A DNA stretch of 7,316 nucleotides from Gemmatimonadota bacterium (GTDB lineage: Bacteria; GCA-2686955). The notes beneath the pieces were generated by a model that was not told the DNA's origin, did not search any database, and saw nothing but the letters and a program-made list of their open reading frames with translations. The position numbers and the translations under genes were made by a program. The DNA is taken from contig NYZA01000015.1 in NCBI GenBank assembly GCA_002686955.1, forward strand, positions 1 to 7,316, given 5' to 3'. Position 1 is the first letter of the stretch, and the number at the start of each line of letters is the position of its first letter. This document shows, one piece after another, positions 1 to 7,316 of this stretch.

Positions 1-49
1 GCCCGGATCGAAGAATCTGAGGCGAACGGGGAAGTTCGCCTTGCGCTCC

Positions 50-437
50 AACCCTATGGAAAGCGGTTCAAGCAGCGTTTTCGGCACCGCTGATATCTAC
101 CGATCTGACAAGTATGCCCCGGCGGGGCGCATCAGGCGTCTTCCGGGGCCGTCCCAATCGTCTTTGCTGCATCGCGCGGTCGCCGCGGCAGCCTACCCAA
201 CACGCGCTTTTTCCTGCATCAACCCTCGGGCGGTGGCCAGGCGAGCGACATCCGCATCGAAGCCGAGGAGATCTTGAAGGTGCGAGAGCGGCTGAACTGC
301 TTGATCGCCAATGAGACGGGCCAATCCGAAGAACGCGTCACCGCCGACAGCGACGGCAACTTCCGGATGGACGCCACTCAAGCCCAGGAATACAGTCTGG
401 TGGCAAGGTCATTACGAACTCGTTCGAAATCGATTGA
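50..437 (+). pseudogene. clpP: ClpP protease subunit remnant, frameshifted
   Basis: Decayed C-terminal two thirds of an ATP-dependent Clp protease proteolytic subunit, the cytoplasmic serine peptidase that works with ClpA/ClpX-type unfoldases. Three reading frames are needed to follow it. About 50-120 gives weak similarity around the GGSVTAG...IYD region (GSSSVFGTADIY). From 121 a second frame reads QASSGAV, then SLPNTRFFLHQPSGGG, then ASDIRIEAEEILKVRERL, NETGQSEERV and ATQAQEYSLV. From 402 a third frame reads GKVITNSFEID and stops at 435-437, a normal ClpP ending. The active-site His (codon 217-219, HQP) and a candidate nucleophile Ser (142-144) remain, but the Met that normally follows the Ser is missing and the glycine loop after HQP is shortened. 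The first frame change lies near 119-124 and the last near 400-402. The 5' part is outside the window. The ClpP identification is confident; the first 60 bases are not. Confidence 0.82.
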
Positions 438-705
438 GCCCATGCAGTCGAGTATTTCTGACCGAGACGGAACATCGTGATGACGTGACTGCGGCGGAGG
501 CCGAGTGCGAGAGGGCGACACCACGCGAGCGCTTCCGGAAGTGGGGTATGTCGCGTAGACCGGCAGATCTGACGCAACGCGTGCCGCATCGTGGAAAAGA
601 ATCGCGCCGAGTTGCAGGCACTCTGCCTGTCGTTACGCCTCGACGCGTCTCTCGTTTGACAGCGCAGCTTATCATTGCATAATAGACGAATCTGGCCCTG
701 CGAGA
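438..705. other. Non-coding stretch upstream of the glycan operon
   Basis: No recognisable gene. Open frames cross it on both strands, but their translations are Arg/Ser-rich, match no family I know, and are the sort of frame G+C-rich DNA gives by chance. The only supported element is the promoter at 656-683. Degraded DNA continuing from the clpP remnant is a reasonable reading. Confidence 0.5.
656..683 (+). promoter_or_regulatory. Sigma70-type promoter of the methyltransferase operon
   Basis: A perfect -35 hexamer TTGACA (656-661) is followed, after a 16-bp spacer, by CATAAT (678-683), five of six matches to the -10 consensus. Transcription would begin near 690, just ahead of the methyltransferase gene. 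This start point fits the TTG start codon at 742 (leader of about 50 nt) better than the ATG at 706 (leader of about 15 nt). The assignment rests on sequence only. Confidence 0.6.
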
Positions 706-1707
706 ATGCCGGTTTCGGGCGCCCAGCCAAGAGGTAGCCAGTTGAGCACCGCCGAGCAGGATCTTCTTCGGATCGCATGCTGCATCAAGTGCCGCTCGGA
801 CCTAGAGTTCGACGAAGGCGGGGAATCACTGCTTCGCTGCACGGGTTGTCCCGCGTCCTACCCGGTGGTTCACGGTGTTCCCGTCTTGTTGGACCCGGAT
901 GCAGACGAAGTGTCGAGCCTCGTGAGGGACTTCTACGCATCTGGGTGGAAGCGGAAGGATGGGGGGGCGCTCGCGGCCCGAGAGATCCACGAGGATCTGT
1001 CCGACTACGGGCAGCAGTACATCAAGACGAACGAAGATCGATTCATTTCGTTCCTCGAGGATGAGCGAGTGGAGTTCTTTCTCGATGTGGGATGTGGCGC
1101 GCAGCCTCGCGTCGATTTCGGCATCCACGGCGATCGACATGTATGCCTGGATCTGTCGCTCGAGGGTTTGATAGAGGCAAGGCAGATTCTGGGCGACAGG
1201 GCGATCTGCATCTGCGGGTCGATTCTCGATATTCCCTTGAAGGATGGTGTGGCGGACCAGGTCATCGCCTCGCATACGCTCTACCACATCGACAGGGATC
1301 TCCAGCCAGTCGCTATTTCAGAGATCGCGCGTGTGAGGGCGCCGCATGGCAAAGCGCTGATCTTCTATGTCAATCCAGACAGCCCGGAGCGAAGGTTCTA
1401 CAGCTCGATCGTCGCCGCCGGGCGCTGGGTCAAGCGGATGATCCGCGGTTCGAGCCTGCCAGTGCGCGAGCCCGCTCTCTATTATTCTCCCCATTCGATC
1501 TCGTTCATGATGGATTGTCTCGCCGAGAAATTTCCTGGCGCCAAGGTGAGCGTGCAGCCGTTGCGCGTACTCATCAAGAAAACATCCCAGCCTCTGATGC
1601 GTCATCACCTCCTCGGGAAATGGGTACTTCGCCTGCTCTTCGCGGTCGAGGCCCGCATGCGTTCACGACCGAGGACGGCAAGCTATGTGTCGTACCTGAT
1701 CGAGTGA
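706..1707 (+). CDS. Zinc-ribbon (Trm112-like) class I SAM methyltransferase
   Basis: Probable cytoplasmic S-adenosylmethionine-dependent methyltransferase of 333 aa. An N-terminal Trm112-like zinc ribbon has the pairs C26-x2-C29 and C45-x2-C48, followed by the typical YPVVHGVPVLL strand. The Rossmann fold begins with motif I FFLDVGCG (residues 124-131). The acidic end of strand 2 is D149 in CLDLS, and the later motifs are GSILDIPLKDGVADQV and SHTLYHI (about 171-195). This pairing is frequent in glycan and natural-product clusters; the substrate is not readable. The next gene starts 9 bp after its stop and may be co-expressed from the promoter at 656-683. The start is uncertain. ATG 706 has no clear ribosome site, whereas TTG 742 is preceded by AAGAGG at a 7-nt spacing and may be the true start, giving 321 aa. 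Codon use and frame look intact, unlike the neighbours. Confidence 0.85.
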   Translation: MPVSGAQPRGSQLSTAEQDLLRIACCIKCRSDLEFDEGGESLLRCTGCPASYPVVHGVPVLLDPDADEVSSLVRDFYASGWKRKDGGALAAREIHEDLSDYGQQYIKTNEDRFISFLEDERVEFFLDVGCGAQPRVDFGIHGDRHVCLDLSLEGLIEARQILGDRAICICGSILDIPLKDGVADQVIASHTLYHIDRDLQPVAISEIARVRAPHGKALIFYVNPDSPERRFYSSIVAAGRWVKRMIRGSSLPVREPALYYSPHSISFMMDCLAEKFPGAKVSVQPLRVLIKKTSQPLMRHHLLGKWVLRLLFAVEARMRSRPRTASYVSYLIE

Positions 1708-1716
1708 CTTGGCATC

Positions 1717-2919
1717 GTGCCCTCGATAATCAATAGAGTCGTTGCGCGGCTCCGTCGTCCGCTCTTCCTTTGCGTGGTACGGGTCTGTGAGCGGATCCTG
1801 AAAAAACGCCCAGAGCTGGTGCTCTTCGGTGCGATGAGCGGAGATTGGTACGGCGACAACCCTCGCTACGTCTTCGAGTGGGTTCTTGCGAATCGACCCG
1901 GAATCGAGCCATTGTGGATTACCAAGAGTTCCGTCGTGGCTCGTCGCCTGCGCAGCGAGGGCAAGCCCGTCGCCCTCGCGTTCTCTCTAGCGGGGCTTGT
2001 TGCTCTGGCTCGGGCCGAGAAGGCCGTCTTTTCGGATGGACTCATGGACCTCGCTATGGATCCGGTACTCGTACCGAACTCGCTGTCCTTGATCGCATTG
2101 CGGCACGGCCGTTCAGTCAAGCGAGTGCGCTTCGCGCGTCTCGGCCACAAGATCTCGGAAGGCGAAACCCGAGCCAAGCGCAAGGAGGGTAGCCTCACTC
2201 GTGTAGTGATATCCACTTCGGAATTCGTGTCGGATATTCAGGAAGAGTGCCTTCAGATCGGGAGGGAAAAGCACGTCGTTACAGGATATCCGAGGAATGA
2301 TGTGCTGATGTCGGTACCAAGAGCCCATGTCTGCCAATGGAATCTATTCCTTGGTGAGATGACGCCCGCCAAGACCGTCCTATACGCACCTACCTGGCGG
2401 CACGGTCGAAACCCGACACGCTTCTTCCCTTTCGACGATGTCGACATATCTGCGCTTCATGAATTCTGCGAGCGACGTCAGTGCCTGATCCTGCTGCGGC
2501 CTCATCGGGGTGATCTCGTCTATCCAGAGGTGCGAGCGTTCTTCGACGAACTCACCGGTTCTCCCTGGATTCGTTTGGCGACCCATGTCGAGTTCCATGA
2601 CGTAAATTCATTCCTGCCGTTCGTAGATGGCCTCGTCTGTGACTACTCGGCTCTGTATCACGATTTCCTCCTGCTGGACCGACCTCTGATATTCGTCCCT
2701 TACGACTATGAGGAATTTGCCATGACGAACGGATTCCTTTACGACTATTTCGAGTGGCTTCCCGGTTCTGCGGTGTCGACGTTCGCCGATTTCCTGCTGG
2801 AATTGACAAGAATCGGCAATGGGAGTGATGCGCATTCTGAAGCACGGCGACTGCTGCGAGATCGAATTCACACGTATCAGGATGCATCTTCGACTGAGAG
2901 GGTCGCGGAGTTGCTCTGA
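1717..2919 (+). CDS. CDP-glycerol glycerophosphotransferase family protein (TagB/TagF-like)
   Basis: 400-aa member of the CDP-glycerol:poly(glycerophosphate) glycerophosphotransferase family (Glyphos_transf, GT-B fold). These peripheral inner-membrane enzymes move glycerol- or ribitol-phosphate, or related polyol phosphates, onto teichoic-acid-like or capsular glycans. Visible signatures are an N-terminal VLFGAMSGDWYGDNPRYVFE segment (35-54), RHGRSVKR (129-136, the usual HGxxxK site), TGYPRND (189-195), YAPTWRHG (223-230), LRPHRGD (260-266, where RPHP is more usual) and VCDYSALYHDFLLLDRPLIF (307-326), the nucleotide-binding end. The length fits the single-domain form. The start is GTG, 9 bp after the upstream stop, with only a weak ribosome site, so translational coupling is plausible. 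The combination suggests surface polysaccharide modification; donor and acceptor cannot be told. Confidence 0.88.
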   Translation: MPSIINRVVARLRRPLFLCVVRVCERILKKRPELVLFGAMSGDWYGDNPRYVFEWVLANRPGIEPLWITKSSVVARRLRSEGKPVALAFSLAGLVALARAEKAVFSDGLMDLAMDPVLVPNSLSLIALRHGRSVKRVRFARLGHKISEGETRAKRKEGSLTRVVISTSEFVSDIQEECLQIGREKHVVTGYPRNDVLMSVPRAHVCQWNLFLGEMTPAKTVLYAPTWRHGRNPTRFFPFDDVDISALHEFCERRQCLILLRPHRGDLVYPEVRAFFDELTGSPWIRLATHVEFHDVNSFLPFVDGLVCDYSALYHDFLLLDRPLIFVPYDYEEFAMTNGFLYDYFEWLPGSAVSTFADFLLELTRIGNGSDAHSEARRLLRDRIHTYQDASSTERVAELL

Positions 2920-2971
2920 GCCAGCGGAGAGTCTCCGAAGCGAATCCGGTCCGAGTGGTGCGTGCGGTCGC

Positions 2972-3000
2972 TGTGAAATTACAGATCGAGCCGGACATCC
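2972..3000 (+). mobile_element. Probable left terminus of the IS481-like element
   Basis: The sequence starting TGTGAAATT at 2972 lies about 65 bp before the transposase start and begins with TG, as IS481-family ends generally do. No matching right inverted repeat is present because the element is truncated near 3512, so the exact boundary is inferred. Confidence 0.35.
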
Positions 3001-3026
3001 TGCCATGATCTCTAGAGATCATGGCA
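3001..3026. repeat. Perfect 26-bp palindrome before the transposase start
   Basis: Positions 3001-3013 are the exact reverse complement of 3014-3026, centred on TCTAGA. As RNA it would form a stem of about 11 bp with a 4-nt loop. It ends one base before the GGGAGG ribosome site (3028-3033) of the transposase. Possible roles are a binding site for a dimeric regulator or the transposase, or a hairpin that blocks translation of transcripts entering from outside the element. No T-run follows, so it is not a standard terminator. Confidence 0.85.
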
Positions 3027-3038
3027 CGGGAGGTCCAA

Positions 3039-3734
3039 ATGACGAGCGACCAGAGGGAAATTCATCGCAAGAAGCGAGTTCCCGAATACGCGGAGCGGAT
3101 CGGCAACATCAACAAGGCCTGCCGATACTTTGGGGTCGCCCGATCCACGTTCTATCTGTGGCGAGAGGGATATCGCGAGTCCGGGGATGAGGGCTTGCGA
3201 AGCCGCAGATGCGGTCCGCACCACCATCCGAACAAGACGCCGGACGATGTGGTCGAGAAGATCCTGCACCTGCGTCGGACCTATCACATGGGACCGATCC
3301 GGATCGTGTGGTATCTCGAGCGCTACCACGCCATCAAGGCCTCCGACGCCACGGTCTATCGGGTCTGCAAGCAGCATGGGCTCAATCGGCTTCCGAACCG
3401 AGTCGGGCGACGTGCCGTGCACACGCATCGATACCAGAAGAAGGTCCCTGGCCATCACGTGCAGGTCGAGGTCAAGTTCCTGACGCTGAAGCAAAAGAAG
3501 GGAGCCCCCGTTCCCGGAACGAGCCCCTTTGGGCCTACTTGTCATATCGCCCTACTATCGGTGGTGCGGAAAACGCAGCTTGAAATCCCTATTCCCCAAC
3601 CGAAGGACGCCCCGTTTGCGAATACAGAGTGCGGAACTTCCGATCCAACCGGACCAATGCCCGATTCGTCATCTCGCGCGTCGAACGAAGCGGATGATCG
3701 GGCGGAATCCGAGACTCCGACGATACGTAGCTGA
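3039..3734 (+). pseudogene. Truncated IS481-family transposase
   Basis: N-terminal half of an IS481-type DDE transposase. Counting from ATG 3039, an HTH region (GNINKACRYFGVARSTFYLW, 22-41) is followed by a second helical domain (MGPIRIVWYLERYH, 84-97; ATVYRVCKQHGLNR, 104-117). The start of the integrase core is GHHVQVEVKFLTLK (138-151). Family members normally have VQVDVKF here, where the Asp is the first catalytic residue; this copy has Glu (codon 3468-3470). Similarity ends about residue 158 (near 3512). The frame then runs through unrelated sequence, beginning with the repeat at 3513, to a stop at 3734. Family members are usually longer than 300 aa and include the two later acidic residues, so this one is inactive. 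The start is chosen because GGGAGG (3028-3033) sits 5 nt before ATG 3039; an upstream in-frame ATG at 3021 lies inside the palindrome. Confidence 0.85.
3513..3573 (+). repeat. 61-bp exact direct repeat, copy 1
   Basis: Identical over all 61 bases to 7256-7316, in the same orientation. Weaker similarity continues about 15-20 bp upstream, with AAGAAGG, then four or five C, then GTT in both copies. Copy 1 begins where the IS481 transposase loses similarity. The match to the right is limited only by the window end, so the true repeat may be longer. No coding family, attC site or known IS end is recognised in it. It contains a short inverted repeat, GCCC-CTTT-GGGC. Confidence 0.95.
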
Positions 3735-4137
3735 ACATGGATGACTGATCTTGATCGGTTCCGCGCATTCTTCACCCCCGATCAATCAGGTACCATCTGA
3801 TTCAACGCCGTGCACGGGGTTTTTCCGCAGCCTGCTAGACTATGCAGGTCTGAGGCGACGTCGCCGAGCGACTCTGAACCGTTCTTGTTCTCGCCTGGTA
3901 AGTGGGTATTGAGCGGCGACCGTACGGGCCGTTCGGAAGTCGTTCAGCGCGTGGCGCATGCGGAGAGGACATTCACGATTCCCCGGCTTCGCGCGGGAGG
4001 TGGAATGGCAGCTGAGTCATGCAGCGTTCTCGCTTGTGCCGCGCTATCCGTTCGAGTCGTGCAGGTTCGGGGATTCGACGATTTGCGAAATCACCGCGGC
4101 AAGCGAACCGAGCTCACACAAGTCGGAGGAGAATTCT
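3735..4137. other. Intergenic region without a recognised gene
   Basis: Open frames cross this stretch, but their translations are low-conviction and overlap in several frames. One ATG at 4005 has a GGGAGG 4 nt upstream, but its product is unfamiliar and its frame runs into the better-supported gene at 4138. The first part may belong to the unidentified repeat-bearing element, whose far end is not defined. The inverted repeat at 3745-3789 is the only clear structure. Confidence 0.45.
3745..3789. repeat. Interrupted inverted repeat
   Basis: CTGA-TC-TTGATCGG (3745-3758) pairs with CCGATCAA-TCAG (3778-3789), leaving a 2-nt bulge and a 19-nt loop; the inner eight bases match perfectly. No T-run follows. 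It could be an operator, a hairpin end of the unidentified element, or chance. Confidence 0.5.
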
Positions 4138-4560
4138 GTGCGGAGTGTGATTATCTCATCTGGACGACCTCGGCGACGATTCCTTTTGCTGATATTAATC
4201 TCGGTTCTCGTTCCGTCATCAGGAAATGGTCAGGTCGAACCGATTCCGAGACTTCATTCGAGCGAGCAGGTAAGTGAGATCCTCATAAGGCTCCTAACAT
4301 ACAGTTCGGTAGCTCGTGCATGTGAGCATACGAAGCCGCACTACGACCTAAAGGCGACATTGGTCCAGGCGCTAGAGCTTCTTAACAGAAAGGGTGGGTT
4401 CACATCGGAAGGGAAGAGTCTGTACCGCGACCCCGAGACCTATCTGCGTCGTGGTGCCGCTGAATACCTCCGGCATCCATACGTCACGTGCGGTCAAGCT
4501 TTCACCTACTACTCGACAATCCTCGACTATTCGAGAGAGTTCATTCGTGGGAACTCGTAG
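4138..4560 (+). CDS. Small secreted protein of unknown function
   Basis: 140-aa protein of no family I recognise. The GTG start at 4138 is chosen over an upstream ATG (3958) because GGAGGA (4125-4130) lies 7 nt before it and because it places a textbook signal peptide at the N terminus: a basic region (GRPRRR), a hydrophobic core (FLLLILISVLV) and a likely cleavage near SSGNGQ (about residue 32). The mature part of about 108 residues is predicted to be helical and holds two cysteines (in ACEHTK and VTCGQA) that could form one disulfide once exported, plus the segment LVQALELLNRKGGF. It is probably periplasmic or secreted. An Rap1a/Tai-type immunity protein or a small envelope protein would be similar in size and layout, but no motif supports a choice. 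It stands alone, with debris on both sides. Confidence 0.65.
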   Translation: MRSVIISSGRPRRRFLLLILISVLVPSSGNGQVEPIPRLHSSEQVSEILIRLLTYSSVARACEHTKPHYDLKATLVQALELLNRKGGFTSEGKSLYRDPETYLRRGAAEYLRHPYVTCGQAFTYYSTILDYSREFIRGNS

Positions 4561-5190
4561 GGCTGAGTGGCGACTTCGTAATCGCTTCTAGGTGGTCAAA
4601 GGCAAGAATGTACTAATGGCTCGTGGCCCCGTGGAGAGATCGCGACACTCAACGCCTATCTGAGGAACGCCCGCACCGAGCTTCTTGATCTGTTCAATCG
4701 CTACTCGGAATAGCTCTGGACCGCCACCAAGGAAGCCAGCGTTCCGAACGCCTCCTCCGAGTCGGCCGAGGACGCAAAGCCCTGGGATGGAAGGGGAAAA
4801 GTGGAGCGCGGGACCGGTCTCGAACCGGCGACCCTCAGCTTGGGAAACCGAAGAAAGGGCTCGAAGTGACGGGGACTTGCGCTCTCGATGCGGCAGATCA
4901 CGGCACGCAGCGGCACCGAGCGGCATCCAGATCGTCACCGAACTCGGGAAACGTCACTCCGCGTCACCAGATCGCGGTTGATCGCCCCGCCCACGAGTGC
5001 CCTGCCCGTCGACCGCGGCGCTTGTCGGCTGGACTAGAGTTTCACGACGGAACTCAGCTCAGGAGTGCGCGTGAAGAACGAACTGCGGAAGAGCAAGGAG
5101 AGAGCGATCGTGGATCGCTGGCTAAACTCGTTCGCCGAACCCGGCCGCTAGTCGCAGCGGCTCGGAGGATGCCTCGATAGTCGGACCGGG
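4561..5190. other. Intergenic region with a tRNA scar and coding fragments
   Basis: No intact gene is recognised. It contains the tRNA-Gly half (4802-4846) and a fragment that looks coding, ending in LNAYLRNARTELLDLF plus NRYSE and a stop at 4711-4713. Two in-frame stops lie upstream (4564-4566, 4579-4581) and there is no start with a ribosome site. It also has a 26-codon GTG frame (5071-5151) with AGGAG 5 nt upstream, whose product matches nothing known to me. Longer open frames on either strand read through the tRNA sequence and are not believable. Confidence 0.45.
4802..4846 (-). other. 3' half of tRNA-Gly(CCC), probable attachment-site scar
   Basis: Read on the reverse strand from 4846 to 4802, the sequence has an anticodon loop TTCCCAA (anticodon CCC, glycine), the 3' anticodon strand GCTGA, and a variable loop. 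A T arm with TTCGAGA and paired sides GCCGG/CCGGT follows, then an acceptor strand CCCGCGC, discriminator T and CCA. U73 agrees with bacterial tRNA-Gly. The 5' half is absent: no D arm and no GCGCGGG acceptor partner lies 20-40 bp further along. A 3' tRNA fragment starting at the anticodon loop is the usual att duplicate left by tyrosine-recombinase islands. It is not a functional tRNA. A decayed full tRNA gene is the alternative. Confidence 0.75.
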
Positions 5191-5448
5191 CTACGTGCGC
5201 CTGCTCCGCGCCATCTCCCTAGCCCCGATTAGCGCGGCCTCATGGATCTCGCCGCACTGGACGAGCGAGACTTTGTATCCGTAGTTTCGAGCGCCGAGCT
5301 TGATCGACGCGATCGACTCGGGACCGGGCGGAAAGCGGCCCCAGCGGTCGAAGCTATCCAAATAGAGTTCGGCGACGTTGAGGATGAACTCCTCGCGCTG
5401 AGCCGGCGACAGATTCTCGAATTTCGTCTTCTTCGAAAAGAGGCTCAT
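5191..5448 (-). CDS. Small protein of unknown function, paralogue of the upstream gene
   Basis: 85-aa probably cytoplasmic protein, with no signal peptide or membrane segment. The start is ATG 5448, preceded by GGGAGAGAGA; a more upstream in-frame ATG (5493) would add 15 residues with no counterpart in the paralogue. It begins MSLFSKKTKFENLSPAQREE, then FILNVAELYLDSFDRWGRFP, and later has GYKVSLVQCGEIHEAALIGA. Aligned by eye with the product of 5554-5853 it shares the start MxLFxKK, an SP-x-x-R-x-x-F motif, a central P-x3-E, a G-x-K, and EIHxAA, about 22 identities in 83 columns with two small gaps. The two genes lie in tandem, 105 bp apart, in the same direction. I recognise no family. The conserved EIH could be a metal or catalytic site or simply structural. 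Confidence 0.68.
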   Translation of the reverse strand: MSLFSKKTKFENLSPAQREEFILNVAELYLDSFDRWGRFPPGPESIASIKLGARNYGYKVSLVQCGEIHEAALIGAREMARSRRT

Positions 5449-5553
5449 CAGTCTCTCTCTCCCGAGCGGCACGCGGGGCGCCGCAAGGTGCACCAGACGC
5501 TGGCAAGGCCAGCAAGATACCGAACTAGCACCGTACGCGGCCGCGCACCCGGA

Positions 5554-5853
5554 TCATCCCTTTCCGCCCATTCGAGCGTTGACCTCGGCCTGCTCCTGTG
5601 GAGACATTCGCTCGTAGACAAGCTCGCCCGTTCGCAAACTCGCAGCGACGTGGATCTCGGCTGCCTCGCGATCGTTCGCCTTCAAGCCGTGGGTCTTTAG
5701 CGCGTGATGTACGAGAGCAAGCGCCTCTTCCTTCTCCGTCGGCCACTTCTCGCCGGCGCTATGAGCGTTGACCATCGTCATCGCATAGCGCTCGGTGAAG
5801 TTCGCGCGATCTTCGGGCGAGTGGGTGTGCCACTTCTTTCTGAACAGTCCCAT
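5554..5853 (-). CDS. Small protein of unknown function, first of a tandem pair
   Basis: 99-aa charged, probably cytoplasmic protein. The start ATG 5853 is well supported: GGAGG (5865-5861 on the reverse strand) lies 7 nt upstream, and the longer open frame above it reads through the recombinase remnant in another frame. It begins MGLFRKKWHTHSPEDRANFT, has a conserved EKWPTEKEEALALVHHAL segment (35-52), then REAAEIHVAA (62-71), and ends with a polar tail (SPQEQAEVNARMGGKG). The tail is about 15 residues longer than in its paralogue at 5191-5448, which it precedes and with which it is probably co-transcribed. No family is recognised. It lies just downstream of a tyrosine-recombinase remnant, so it may be island cargo. 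Confidence 0.72.
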   Translation of the reverse strand: MGLFRKKWHTHSPEDRANFTERYAMTMVNAHSAGEKWPTEKEEALALVHHALKTHGLKANDREAAEIHVAASLRTGELVYERMSPQEQAEVNARMGGKG

Positions 5854-5926
5854 GGCTATACCTCCGTTGGTTAGGTCTACTGGTCCACTGCGCCAATGAA
5901 GCCGATGACGATCACCGAGAAGACGA

Positions 5927-6016
5927 TCATCGCGAGCGCCCGCCTTCGAGCGCCCAGGACGCGAACGTGTGTCGCGTGTCGTGAACGAGGTCGAAGGCGA
6001 GATCATCGCGGTTTCT
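5927..6016 (-). pseudogene. Tyrosine recombinase (phage-type integrase) remnant
   Basis: On the reverse strand this frame reads RDDLAFDLVHDTRHTFASW then ALEGGRSR and stops at 5929-5927. HDxRHTFASW is the box II core of tyrosine recombinases (usually HDLRHTFASW), holding the catalytic His and Arg; here the Leu is Thr. In intact enzymes the sequence continues with a second His or Trp and the nucleophile Tyr, which are missing in this frame. The N-terminal domain and box I Arg are also not visible upstream, where an IS3-type element begins. It is therefore a short inactive fragment. With the tRNA-Gly half about 1.1 kb away it suggests an old integrative island. The match is short, but too specific to dismiss. 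Confidence 0.62.
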
Positions 6017-6124
6017 AAGATCGCTCGCACCCAATCCGAACCCAGACGCACCCACGGGGGCTGAATCTGTAGCCCGTCAACAGGATTCGGACTCCAGCCC
6101 CTCCTGAGCTAGGAGACATATCAG

Positions 6125-6141
6125 GGGGTCTGGAGGACCCC
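6125..6141 (+). promoter_or_regulatory. Hairpin before the IS3 OrfA start
   Basis: GGGGTC (6125-6130) pairs perfectly with GACCCC (6136-6141) around a 5-nt loop. The GGAG ribosome site (6143-6146) follows almost at once, so the hairpin could limit translation of OrfA from transcripts entering the element. The role is inferred. Confidence 0.45.
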
Positions 6142-6156
6142 GAGGAGTGTCTCGAT

Positions 6157-6531
6157 ATGGAGAAGCAGAAGAAGCAAACGAGCGAAGCGGCGGTGCGAGA
6201 GATCCGCCGAAGGACCCGGCGGAAGTTCTCTCTGGAAGAGAAGATCCGGGTCGTCCTCGAAGAGCTGCGAGGCGAGCAAAGCGTCGCCGAGCTCTGCCGA
6301 CGTGAAGGCATTCCCTCGAACCTCTACTGCCGCTGGAGCAAGGATTTCCTTGAAGGCGGGAAGAAGCAGCTTGCTGGTGATACGGTTCGCGAAGCCACCA
6401 GCGACGAAGTCAAAGATCTGCGAAGCGAGGCGAGCGGAAGCAGCTGCTCGCCCAGTTCGCATTTGTGCACAGCCATCACCCGGGGGGAGGAAAGCGTAGC
6501 ACCTAGGCTGAACGCGCAAAGAGGCGCGTAA
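6157..6531 (+). pseudogene. Truncated IS3-family OrfA (HTH transposase subunit)
   Basis: N-terminal part of a Transposase_8-type HTH protein, the OrfA of IS3-family elements, which binds the element ends and normally joins OrfB by programmed frameshifting. The sequence TRRKFSLEEKIRVVLEELRG (residues 20-39), SVAELCRREGIPSNLYCRWS (41-60) and the segment up to ATSDEVKDLRSEA (80-92) follow the family closely. After about position 6432 the similarity ends and the frame continues into unrelated residues until a stop at 6529-6531. The usual C-terminal coiled coil and the whole OrfB integrase are absent. The ATG at 6157 has GGAG 10 nt upstream. The break falls on a GGCGAGC/GCTCGCC inverted repeat (6429-6452). 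The element cannot move itself. Confidence 0.85.
6429..6452. repeat. Inverted repeat at the OrfA break point
   Basis: GGCGAGC (6429-6435) and GCTCGCC (6446-6452) pair perfectly around a 10-nt loop that itself overlaps the palindrome AGCAGCTGCT. It coincides with the point where OrfA loses family similarity, which may reflect a hairpin-provoked deletion or be coincidence. Confidence 0.5.
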
Positions 6532-6796
6532 CCATCGCGGAGGCCCACGAATTCATTCCGCGTTTCCTCCACCAGTTCACCCGAACATCGTCACTGCATC
6601 GACCTACAGATCCGTATCCATTGAACTTTCGACCAGCTTGGTTTGTAATGCTCCTCAATGAATAACTAACGCTGTTGCCCAAGCCCCAAACGCCGCACCG
6701 TGGGACTTTCCCGTCGAGTGATGGACACGATCGGGCTGAGGTGTTGAACTGCACTCCTCGCAGTTCAGCGTACGGCAAGCACCATGAGAGGTCAGC
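6532..6796. other. Intergenic, no gene recognised
   Basis: The stretch between the truncated OrfA and the DUF4011 gene has no open frame with a recognisable product. It probably carries the promoter of the downstream gene, but I see no convincing -35/-10 pair. The ribosome site of the downstream gene is GAGAGG at 6786-6791. Confidence 0.45.
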
Positions 6797-7240
6797 GTGT
6801 CCGACACCCCAAAGACACCCCAAGTGGACACAGATTATTTCGATCAGGCCCTTGAGATTATCCGCACAAAACTCCTCGATACGACGAGAAGAAACCGACT
6901 ACTCAACTACCGCGAGTCAGCGCGGGACATTGCCGTCATTGACGAAATGCCCGACCAAATTCACGAGCACCTAGTTCTCGATGGAAAACGGTTCCGCTTC
7001 GATTCTCGCGAGGAAACCGAAGACGACCCGGCACTATATCCCGGAGAGGACGGCCTGCCTCTCCTTAAGATTCCGGACACCGCCGAGGTCACAGCTGACT
7101 CAGCATCCCGAGAGCTCCCTGCATCCGCCACCGGCGGCGCCAGCGTCGCACCGCGACATTCCGACGATCTGCTGCAAACAGATCACAGTGAGAAAGATCT
7201 AGCCCGAATAATTCGTGAAGAAGTTTCGTTATTGAATTGA
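6797..7240 (+). pseudogene. N-terminal fragment of a DUF4011-type helicase protein
   Basis: 147-aa open frame that matches the beginning of DUF4011 proteins, very large proteins (commonly well over 1000 aa) with superfamily 1 helicase domains and often a C-terminal DUF3320 or Vsr-like nuclease part. Some of these occur in anti-phage defence loci. Family marks are IIRTKLLDTTRRNRLLNYRE (21-40), IDEMPDQIHEHLVLDGKRF (48-66) and, after a low-complexity linker, APRHSDDLLQT (118-128), where relatives have RHTDxxLQT. The GTG start has GAGAGG 5 nt upstream. The frame ends shortly after the LQT motif with VSLLN and a stop, and the 61-bp repeat follows at 7256. No helicase motif is present, so the product is at most a stump. 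A split or recoded gene continuing past the window cannot be excluded. Confidence 0.72.
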
Positions 7241-7255
7241 AGAAGGCCCCAGTTG

Positions 7256-7316
7256 CCCGGAACGAGCCCCTTTGGGCCTACTTGTCATATCGCCCTACTA
7301 TCGGTGGTGCGGAAAA
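7256..7316 (+). repeat. 61-bp exact direct repeat, copy 2 (cut by window end)
   Basis: Identical to 3513-3573 and in the same orientation. It begins 15 bp after the stop of the DUF4011 fragment. Just upstream GAAGAAGGCCCCAGTTG resembles the bases before copy 1, with one base more between GTT and CCCGG. The window ends inside the repeat, so its length and what follows are unknown. Confidence 0.95.

What the first reader, a model, noticed from the sequence alone, without database searches (positions are those of the whole stretch)
3513..7316. Same unknown sequence follows two unrelated truncated genes
61 bases at 3513-3573 recur exactly at 7256-7316, in the same orientation. Copy 1 begins where an IS481 transposase breaks off, and copy 2 begins 15 bp after a DUF4011 helicase gene stops early. 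One sequence sitting on two independent gene breaks is what the end of a mobile element would give. No known IS terminus, attC site or intron end is recognisable. The blurred similarity just upstream (AAGAAGG...CCCC...GTT) offers another reading: copy 2 may carry a few bases of IS481 sequence, so the two may descend from one rearranged unit. The 3.7 kb between copies could also be a segment bounded by direct repeats. A contig ending at a shared k-mer is a duller explanation for copy 2 stopping at exactly 61 matching bases.
Basis: partly seen in the sequence, partly recalled or inferred. Interest (0 to 1): 0.68.

Follow-up and report, generated by a model that had tools for sequence, protein, structure and literature searches.

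The report
Abundant short repeat of unknown mobility
The sequence seen twice in this window is one copy of an 85-base DNA repeat that occurs up to more than a hundred times per genome in a group of uncultured bacteria, mostly between genes and in either direction; how it spreads is unknown, and the broken genes beside it here may be genuine or may be wrong joins made when the genome was assembled.

Summary
The 61-base repeat is real. Copy 1 (3513-3597) is a complete 85-bp unit. Copy 2 (7256-7316) is the first 61 bases of the same unit, cut by the contig end. A degenerate third copy lies at 62-126 (minus strand). The unit belongs to an interspersed family: 9 matches in the home bin, 68 to 150 or more in each of five bins of another lineage. 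Both ends are sharp, flanks are random on both sides, and I found no target duplication, terminal inverted repeat or ORF. Copies lie mostly between genes, with no gene-orientation preference. I tested and rejected integron attC sites (no conserved fold, no orientation bias, no link with integron integrases) and REP elements moved by Y1/RAYT transposases (no such gene in four of the five richest bins). The window contig does not match its bin in composition and contigs break at the unit, so the two-sided break may be a misjoin. Best reading: a new family of small non-autonomous interspersed repeats, mobiliser unknown.

The parts
3513..3597 (+). complete 85-bp repeat unit, copy 1
   Evidence: 100% identical to C72:7166-7250 and to two copies in G291 contig C127; both boundaries set by alignment of 71 copies
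7256..7316 (+). copy 2: first 61 bases of the same unit, cut by the contig end
   Evidence: contig length 7316 = window
62..126 (-). degenerate third copy of the unit
   Evidence: nhmmer with a profile built from the other copies: model 12-76, E 8e-13
1..61 (-). segment following the degenerate copy; the same segment follows a unit in two other loci
   Evidence: nhmmer E 9e-15 here, also L054:3120-3181 and L071:6512-6574; G297:C2 86% over window 1-95, G290:C6 91% over window 1-87
2971..3512 (+). 5' part of an IS481-type insertion sequence, broken at copy 1
   Evidence: 81% to G292:C234, 77% to G369:C92; HTH and LZ_Tnp_IS481 hits but no catalytic domain; homologue continues past the break
6797..7240 (+). 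N-terminal fragment of a DUF4011 protein gene
   Evidence: PF13195 E 4.6e-9, profile 1-81 of 158
7199..7256 (+). 58-bp segment present a second time at C72:41-98 (minus) beside a different gene
   Evidence: 100% identity, only two copies in the 10 bins searched
6066..6429 (+). left end and start of orfA of an IS3-type element, fragment
   Evidence: 77-87% to several G290/G292/G297 loci; HTH_Tnp_1 E 7e-12

Best explanation
The shared sequence is an 85-bp, non-coding, interspersed repeat: a small non-autonomous mobile or formerly mobile unit that has been copied to many places in the genomes of one bacterial lineage. SHOWN: dozens to more than a hundred copies per bin; several subtypes in different bins; sharp ends (CCCG... 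and ...TTCCTATCYSC); random flanks on both sides; no target duplication or terminal inverted repeat; preference for non-coding positions; no preference relative to gene direction; a short palindrome near the 5' end in most copies. INFERRED: it is spread as a unit by an enzyme acting in trans that recognises the palindrome and the conserved 3' half (single-strand or hairpin recognition would fit ends that leave no duplication), and insertions into genes are mostly lost, leaving extragenic copies. The enzyme is not identified. INFERRED for this window: the contig belongs to such a bacterium rather than to its assigned bin, and copy 1 either inserted in degenerate, IS-rich DNA followed by rearrangement, or is a place where the assembler joined two loci through the repeat.
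For: Copies: 9 in the home bin, 68 (G290), 105 (G292), 126 (G369), 140 (G297) and at least 150 (G364, scoring cap) at E<=0.01; 29 of 191 relatives of G290 have a detectable copy, but only the home bin among 290 relatives of G000. Ends and flanks: base frequencies fall to background outside the unit on both sides in 71 full-length copies, and duplication tests at all offsets give nothing beyond one or a few coincidences. Position: coding frames run into the unit far less often than into random positions, 24-31% against 63%. Orientation: upstream gene same/opposite 63/54 (p=0.46), downstream 59/50 (p=0.44). Palindrome: perfect stem of 5 or more in 66% of 5' regions against 21% of shuffles. Foreign contig: tetranucleotide correlation with its own bin 0.03 for C15, against 0.60-0.81 for 28 windows of the same length from that bin; the window's IS elements and units match the G290 group, nothing matches the same-family bin G001.
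Against: No mobilising enzyme found. Where genes are broken at a unit, the other half of the same gene is usually not on the far side: joining the flanks restored no gene that I could recognise by eye, whereas a simple insertion would predict it. Adjacent copies within 6 kb share orientation more often than not (65 against 38, p=0.01), which independent insertion does not explain. The genomes carrying it are multi-contig draft assemblies (two named ones are metagenome bins), so no copy could be confirmed in a finished genome. No empty site was found.
Confidence: 0.62

Rival explanations
1. The repeat family is real, but the striking part of the finding (unrelated broken genes on both sides of identical copies) is an assembly artefact: the unit is nearly as long as a short read, so the assembler entered it at one locus and left at another, or stopped in it. 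This is a rival for the gene-break observation, not for the family.
For: Contigs end inside or next to units: C15 after 61 bases, C72 after 75, G369:C1 two bases after a copy, G369:C16 inside one. C15 matches its own bin in composition at 0.03. Mosaic pieces of about read length occur next to units: 58 bp shared by C15 and C72 in different contexts; a 96-bp oxidase-gene fragment 98% identical to another bin follows a unit in G297:C85. Degenerate copies well inside large G290 contigs are mostly cleanly intergenic.
Against: The same identical 85 bp is crossed in unique contexts by C15 and C72, so the assembler could resolve it. Gene breaks are only slightly commoner at consensus-like copies than at degenerate ones (31% against 24% of ends). 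GC is equal on both sides of copy 1 (0.585 and 0.586). Read length and assembler of this bin are not known to me.
Confidence: 0.45
2. The units are attC recombination sites of integron gene cassettes; a tyrosine integrase moves the intervening DNA.
For: A true integron integrase lies beside several related units in G297:C14 (TIGR02249, 424 bits). Both flanks vary with no duplication. In G297:C85 a small VOC gene has a unit directly after its stop codon, and its relative in G364 is followed by an attC-like GCCTAAC palindrome. Runs of same orientation.
Against: No conserved fold: RNAalifold predicts no pair in 30 aligned units, and single units mostly fold no better than shuffles. The two ends are not complementary and have no RYYYAAC/GTTRRRY pair. 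No gene-orientation bias. Integrases over the cut-off in 10 of 29 unit-bearing bins against 49 of 162 without a detected unit (counted by hand).
Confidence: 0.07
3. A REP-type element moved by a RAYT/Y1 HUH transposase.
For: On the reverse strand most copies read GTAG directly before the palindrome (43 of 70), as in GTAG-tagged REPs (PMC3733652). Extragenic, no TIR, no duplication.
Against: No Y1_Tnp match in G292, G297, G364, G369, G296 or G320; G290 has two, each with an internal stop. The tag is ATAG or other in the rest, and about 55 bp outside the palindrome is conserved too, unlike 20-40 bp REPs.
Confidence: 0.1
4. The unit is the terminus of a larger transposon whose internal parts were deleted.
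For: One locus, G364:C431 (L133:3032-3140), has an inverted copy of the 3' end on the left.
Against: No larger shared sequence or transposase recurs next to units; inverted pairs have varied spacing and content.
Confidence: 0.06

Closest known systems
REP / GTAG-tagged repetitive extragenic palindromes (PMC3733652)
   Same: extragenic, many copies, palindrome usually next to a GTAG tag on one strand, no ORF, no target duplication found
   Different: about 85 bp with a conserved non-palindromic half; tag not invariant; no intact RAYT in the copy-rich bins
MITEs and other small non-autonomous insertion units
   Same: short, non-coding, interspersed, high copy, sharp ends
   Different: no terminal inverted repeats and no target duplication; parent transposon not found
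Integron attC sites / CALINs
   Same: variable DNA on both sides, runs of one orientation, one subtype clustered beside an integron integrase
   Different: no attC fold or core sites, no orientation relative to genes, distribution independent of integrase

Membership tests
Integron attC site | R''/R' core boxes (RYYYAAC ... GTTRRRY) at the two ends | tested here: not met
   aligned copies end CCCG... and ...TTCCTATCYSC
Integron attC site | conserved single-strand hairpin spanning the site | tested here: not met
   0 consensus pairs; single folds mostly near shuffle level
Integron attC site | lies 3' of cassette genes in one orientation | tested here: not met
   63 same / 54 opposite
Integron attC site | associated integron integrase | tested here: inconclusive
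   one cluster beside intI in G297, but no association across 191 bins
REP element (GTAG) | palindrome with a GTAG tag | tested here: inconclusive
   stem of 5+ in 66% against 21% of shuffles; GTAG in 43 of 70
REP element (GTAG) | RAYT / Y1 transposase in the genome | tested here: not met
   none in four of the five copy-richest bins; two with internal stops in G290
MITE | terminal inverted repeats | tested here: not met
   ends not complementary; one odd locus L133
MITE | target site duplication | tested here: not met
   no convincing excess at any length 2-9 or offset
MITE | cognate autonomous transposon | tested here: inconclusive
   none among flanks fetched; whole genomes not searched by transposase class except Y1
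Structured RNA of Rfam | match to a family | tested here: not met
   no match over the gathering score; only weak chance matches below it and none for the G297 subtype

The most novel reading that the evidence does not exclude
A recombination unit of a new type that really does join unrelated DNA: unit-bounded segments, including gene fragments, are cut, shuffled and captured without an attC fold, terminal repeats or duplications, making the unit the signature of an unknown capture system in an uncultured lineage.
Probability: 0.12. Interest if true: 0.78.

Novelty: new member of a known kind. Interest (0 to 1): 0.42.

Why it matters
A repeat present more than a hundred times per genome, with clean ends and no recognisable mobiliser, points to an undescribed way of spreading short DNA, and it probably fragments and scrambles assemblies of these bacteria. 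Anyone reading gene fusions or truncations next to this unit in such bins should first suspect the assembly. If the two-sided gene breaks prove real in long reads, it would be a new gene-capture system.

Tried and rejected
Exact 31-mer and 22-mer scans of viral contigs and a distant blastn of plasmids found nothing. A literature search for the core sequence found no paper. Folding as DNA or RNA gave no stable structure for the window copy. Rejoining flanks to restore an interrupted gene failed for the copies inspected. Target duplication: none convincing. Terminal inverted repeat from locus L133: extra hits were mostly partial or opposite units, not a TIR. Unit as attC: rejected on fold, ends, orientation and integrase distribution. 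Unit as REP with RAYT: rejected on lack of Y1 genes. Unit as cis-element before PEP-CTERM genes: suggested by a few loci, dropped when orientation proved random. Copy 2 as IS481-derived: rejected.

Full report
OBSERVATION. The only direct repeat of 16 bp or more in the window is 3513-3573 = 7256-7316, 61 of 61 bases, same strand. Searching the home genome (G000, 4.28 Mb, 270 contigs; the window is the whole contig C15, 7316 bp) finds the same sequence at C72:7166 and C72:12818 (100%), C72:1972 and C72:5055 (96-97%) and C94:4079- (83%). Aligned copies set the unit at about 85 bp, 3513-3597, starting CCCGGAACG and ending TTCCCC in this subtype. Copy 2 is therefore the start of a full unit cut by the contig end; C72 also ends inside a unit, after 75 bases. 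A profile search finds a degenerate third copy at 62-126, minus strand.

GENE BREAKS AT THE TWO COPIES. Copy 1: the ORF upstream matches HTH domains and weakly the IS481 leucine zipper, with no catalytic domain. A homologue in G297 (L213) matches residues 1-158 and then continues RRYQYTAIDN where the window enters the unit, so the break is real in the sequence and lies at the codon boundary GTT|CCC. Copy 2: the DUF4011 fragment covers profile 1-81 of 158. But the last 58 bp before copy 2 (7199-7256) occur again at C72:41-98, fused there to a different gene and not followed by the unit. So this region is a mosaic of short pieces, and the upstream resemblance between the two copies is not evidence of common descent from IS481.

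FAMILY. A 31-mer scan of 84,980 species genomes hit two other metagenome bins. One (G290, titled Deltaproteobacteria) holds dozens of dispersed copies. Among 191 genomes nearest to G290, 29 have detectable copies; among 290 genomes nearest to G000, only G000 itself. With a sequence model built from 30 copies the counts at E<=0.01 are 9 in G000, 68 in G290, 105 in G292, 126 in G369, 140 in G297 and 150 (the scoring cap) in G364. Subtypes share the layout: CCCG-NNN-CGGG start, a variable palindromic stretch, TTGWCANAATG, ATCGG, GAAAACGCAGCTTGAANTTCCTATCNNC.

ENDS, POSITION, ORIENTATION. In 71 full-length copies base frequencies drop to background directly outside both ends, and no target duplication of 2-9 bp is convincingly enriched at any offset. 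The ends are not inverted repeats. A simple coding-potential test (codon log-odds, trained on long ORFs) shows that a coding frame runs into the unit at 31% of ends for consensus-like copies, 26% for intermediate and 24% for degenerate ones, against 63% at random positions in the same loci. Copies are thus mainly extragenic, and a quarter to a third of ends abut an open coding frame; some of these will be natural gene ends. Neighbouring genes point either way with equal frequency, but units within 6 kb of each other share orientation in 65 of 103 cases (p=0.01). The 5' palindrome is conserved as a palindrome (stem of 5 or more in 66%, shuffles 21%). The gene caller behind searches is a rough one of my own, so these rates are approximate.

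WHAT IT IS NOT. Not a known RNA. Not an attC site: no consensus pair in 30 units, ends without core boxes, no gene orientation, and integron integrases over the cut-off in 10 of 29 unit-bearing relatives against 49 of 162 others (my count). I took the attC reading seriously because one subtype clusters beside a true integrase in G297:C14, and because a VOC gene with a unit at its stop codon in G297 has a relative in G364 followed by an attC-like palindrome. Not a standard REP: the GTAG tag next to the palindrome is present in 43 of 70 copies, but no Y1 transposase was found in G292, G297, G364 or G369, and the two in G290 carry internal stops (REP features from PMC3733652). Not the end of a larger transposon shared among loci.

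ASSEMBLY AND BINNING. The window contig has a tetranucleotide correlation of 0.03 with its own bin, against 0.60-0.81 for 28 windows of the same length from 14 contigs of that bin. Its IS elements match the G290 group at about 74-87%, while the only same-family genome (G001) shares nothing. So C15 is probably misfiled or a foreign island. Contigs end in or beside units repeatedly (C15, C72, G369:C1, G369:C16), and degenerate copies well inside large G290 contigs are mostly cleanly intergenic. Rejoining flanks restored no interrupted gene. A 96-bp oxidase fragment 98% identical to another bin follows a unit in G297:C85. These facts fit misjoins through an 85-bp repeat; equally, they fit recombination in junk-rich islands. 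Equal GC on both sides of copy 1 (0.585 and 0.586) and the small difference in break rate between consensus-like and degenerate copies argue that misjoins are not the whole story. Reads would decide.

MECHANISM. Most likely a trans-acting enzyme copies this short unit to new sites and selection removes most genic insertions. Shown: dispersal, unit ends, extragenic bias, lack of duplication. Inferred: mobility itself, the enzyme, and hairpin recognition. I put 0.62 on the family being a small non-autonomous interspersed repeat of this sort, and 0.45 (not exclusive) on the two-sided gene break at copy 1 being a misjoin.

Noticed in passing
window 4802-4846: Segment 90-96% identical in many genomes of the G290 group; it contains GGTCTCGAACCGG, like the 3' part of a tRNA gene, but ARAGORN finds no complete tRNA. 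Possibly an attachment-site remnant of an island.
   Followed up: partly
L139 (G297:C14) 53-1311, 3471-3551, 5869-5951, 6068-7069: A true integron integrase with five or more units of a distinct subtype (CCCGTCACGGGG...AACATAACGCCC...GGACGTTGTGCC) around PEP-CTERM-type genes; one strand reads TTATGTTAAAT, which from memory equals the XerD arm of the E. coli dif site.
   Followed up: partly
L175 (G297:C85) 3736-3924: A unit directly follows a VOC gene stop codon, then a 96-bp piece of a multicopper-oxidase-like gene 98% identical to G317:C204, then an unrelated gene: a three-piece mosaic.
   Followed up: partly
window 1-7316 (G000:C15): Tetranucleotide composition does not match the bin (correlation 0.03); likely misbinned contig or foreign island.
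   Followed up: yes
L068:6567-8432 and L075:4637-6500: 98.8% identical 1.9-kb stretch in two bins labelled as different phyla (G290 and G291): recent transfer or cross-binning.
   Followed up: no
L199 (G364:C312) 327-440: VOC gene followed by an attC-like palindrome starting GCCTAAC; its relative in G297 carries the 85-bp unit at the same point.
   Followed up: no
L020 (G000:C72) 9969-11816: Intact-looking DUF262/GmrSD-type restriction gene (PF03235, E 3e-32) between two units.
   Followed up: no
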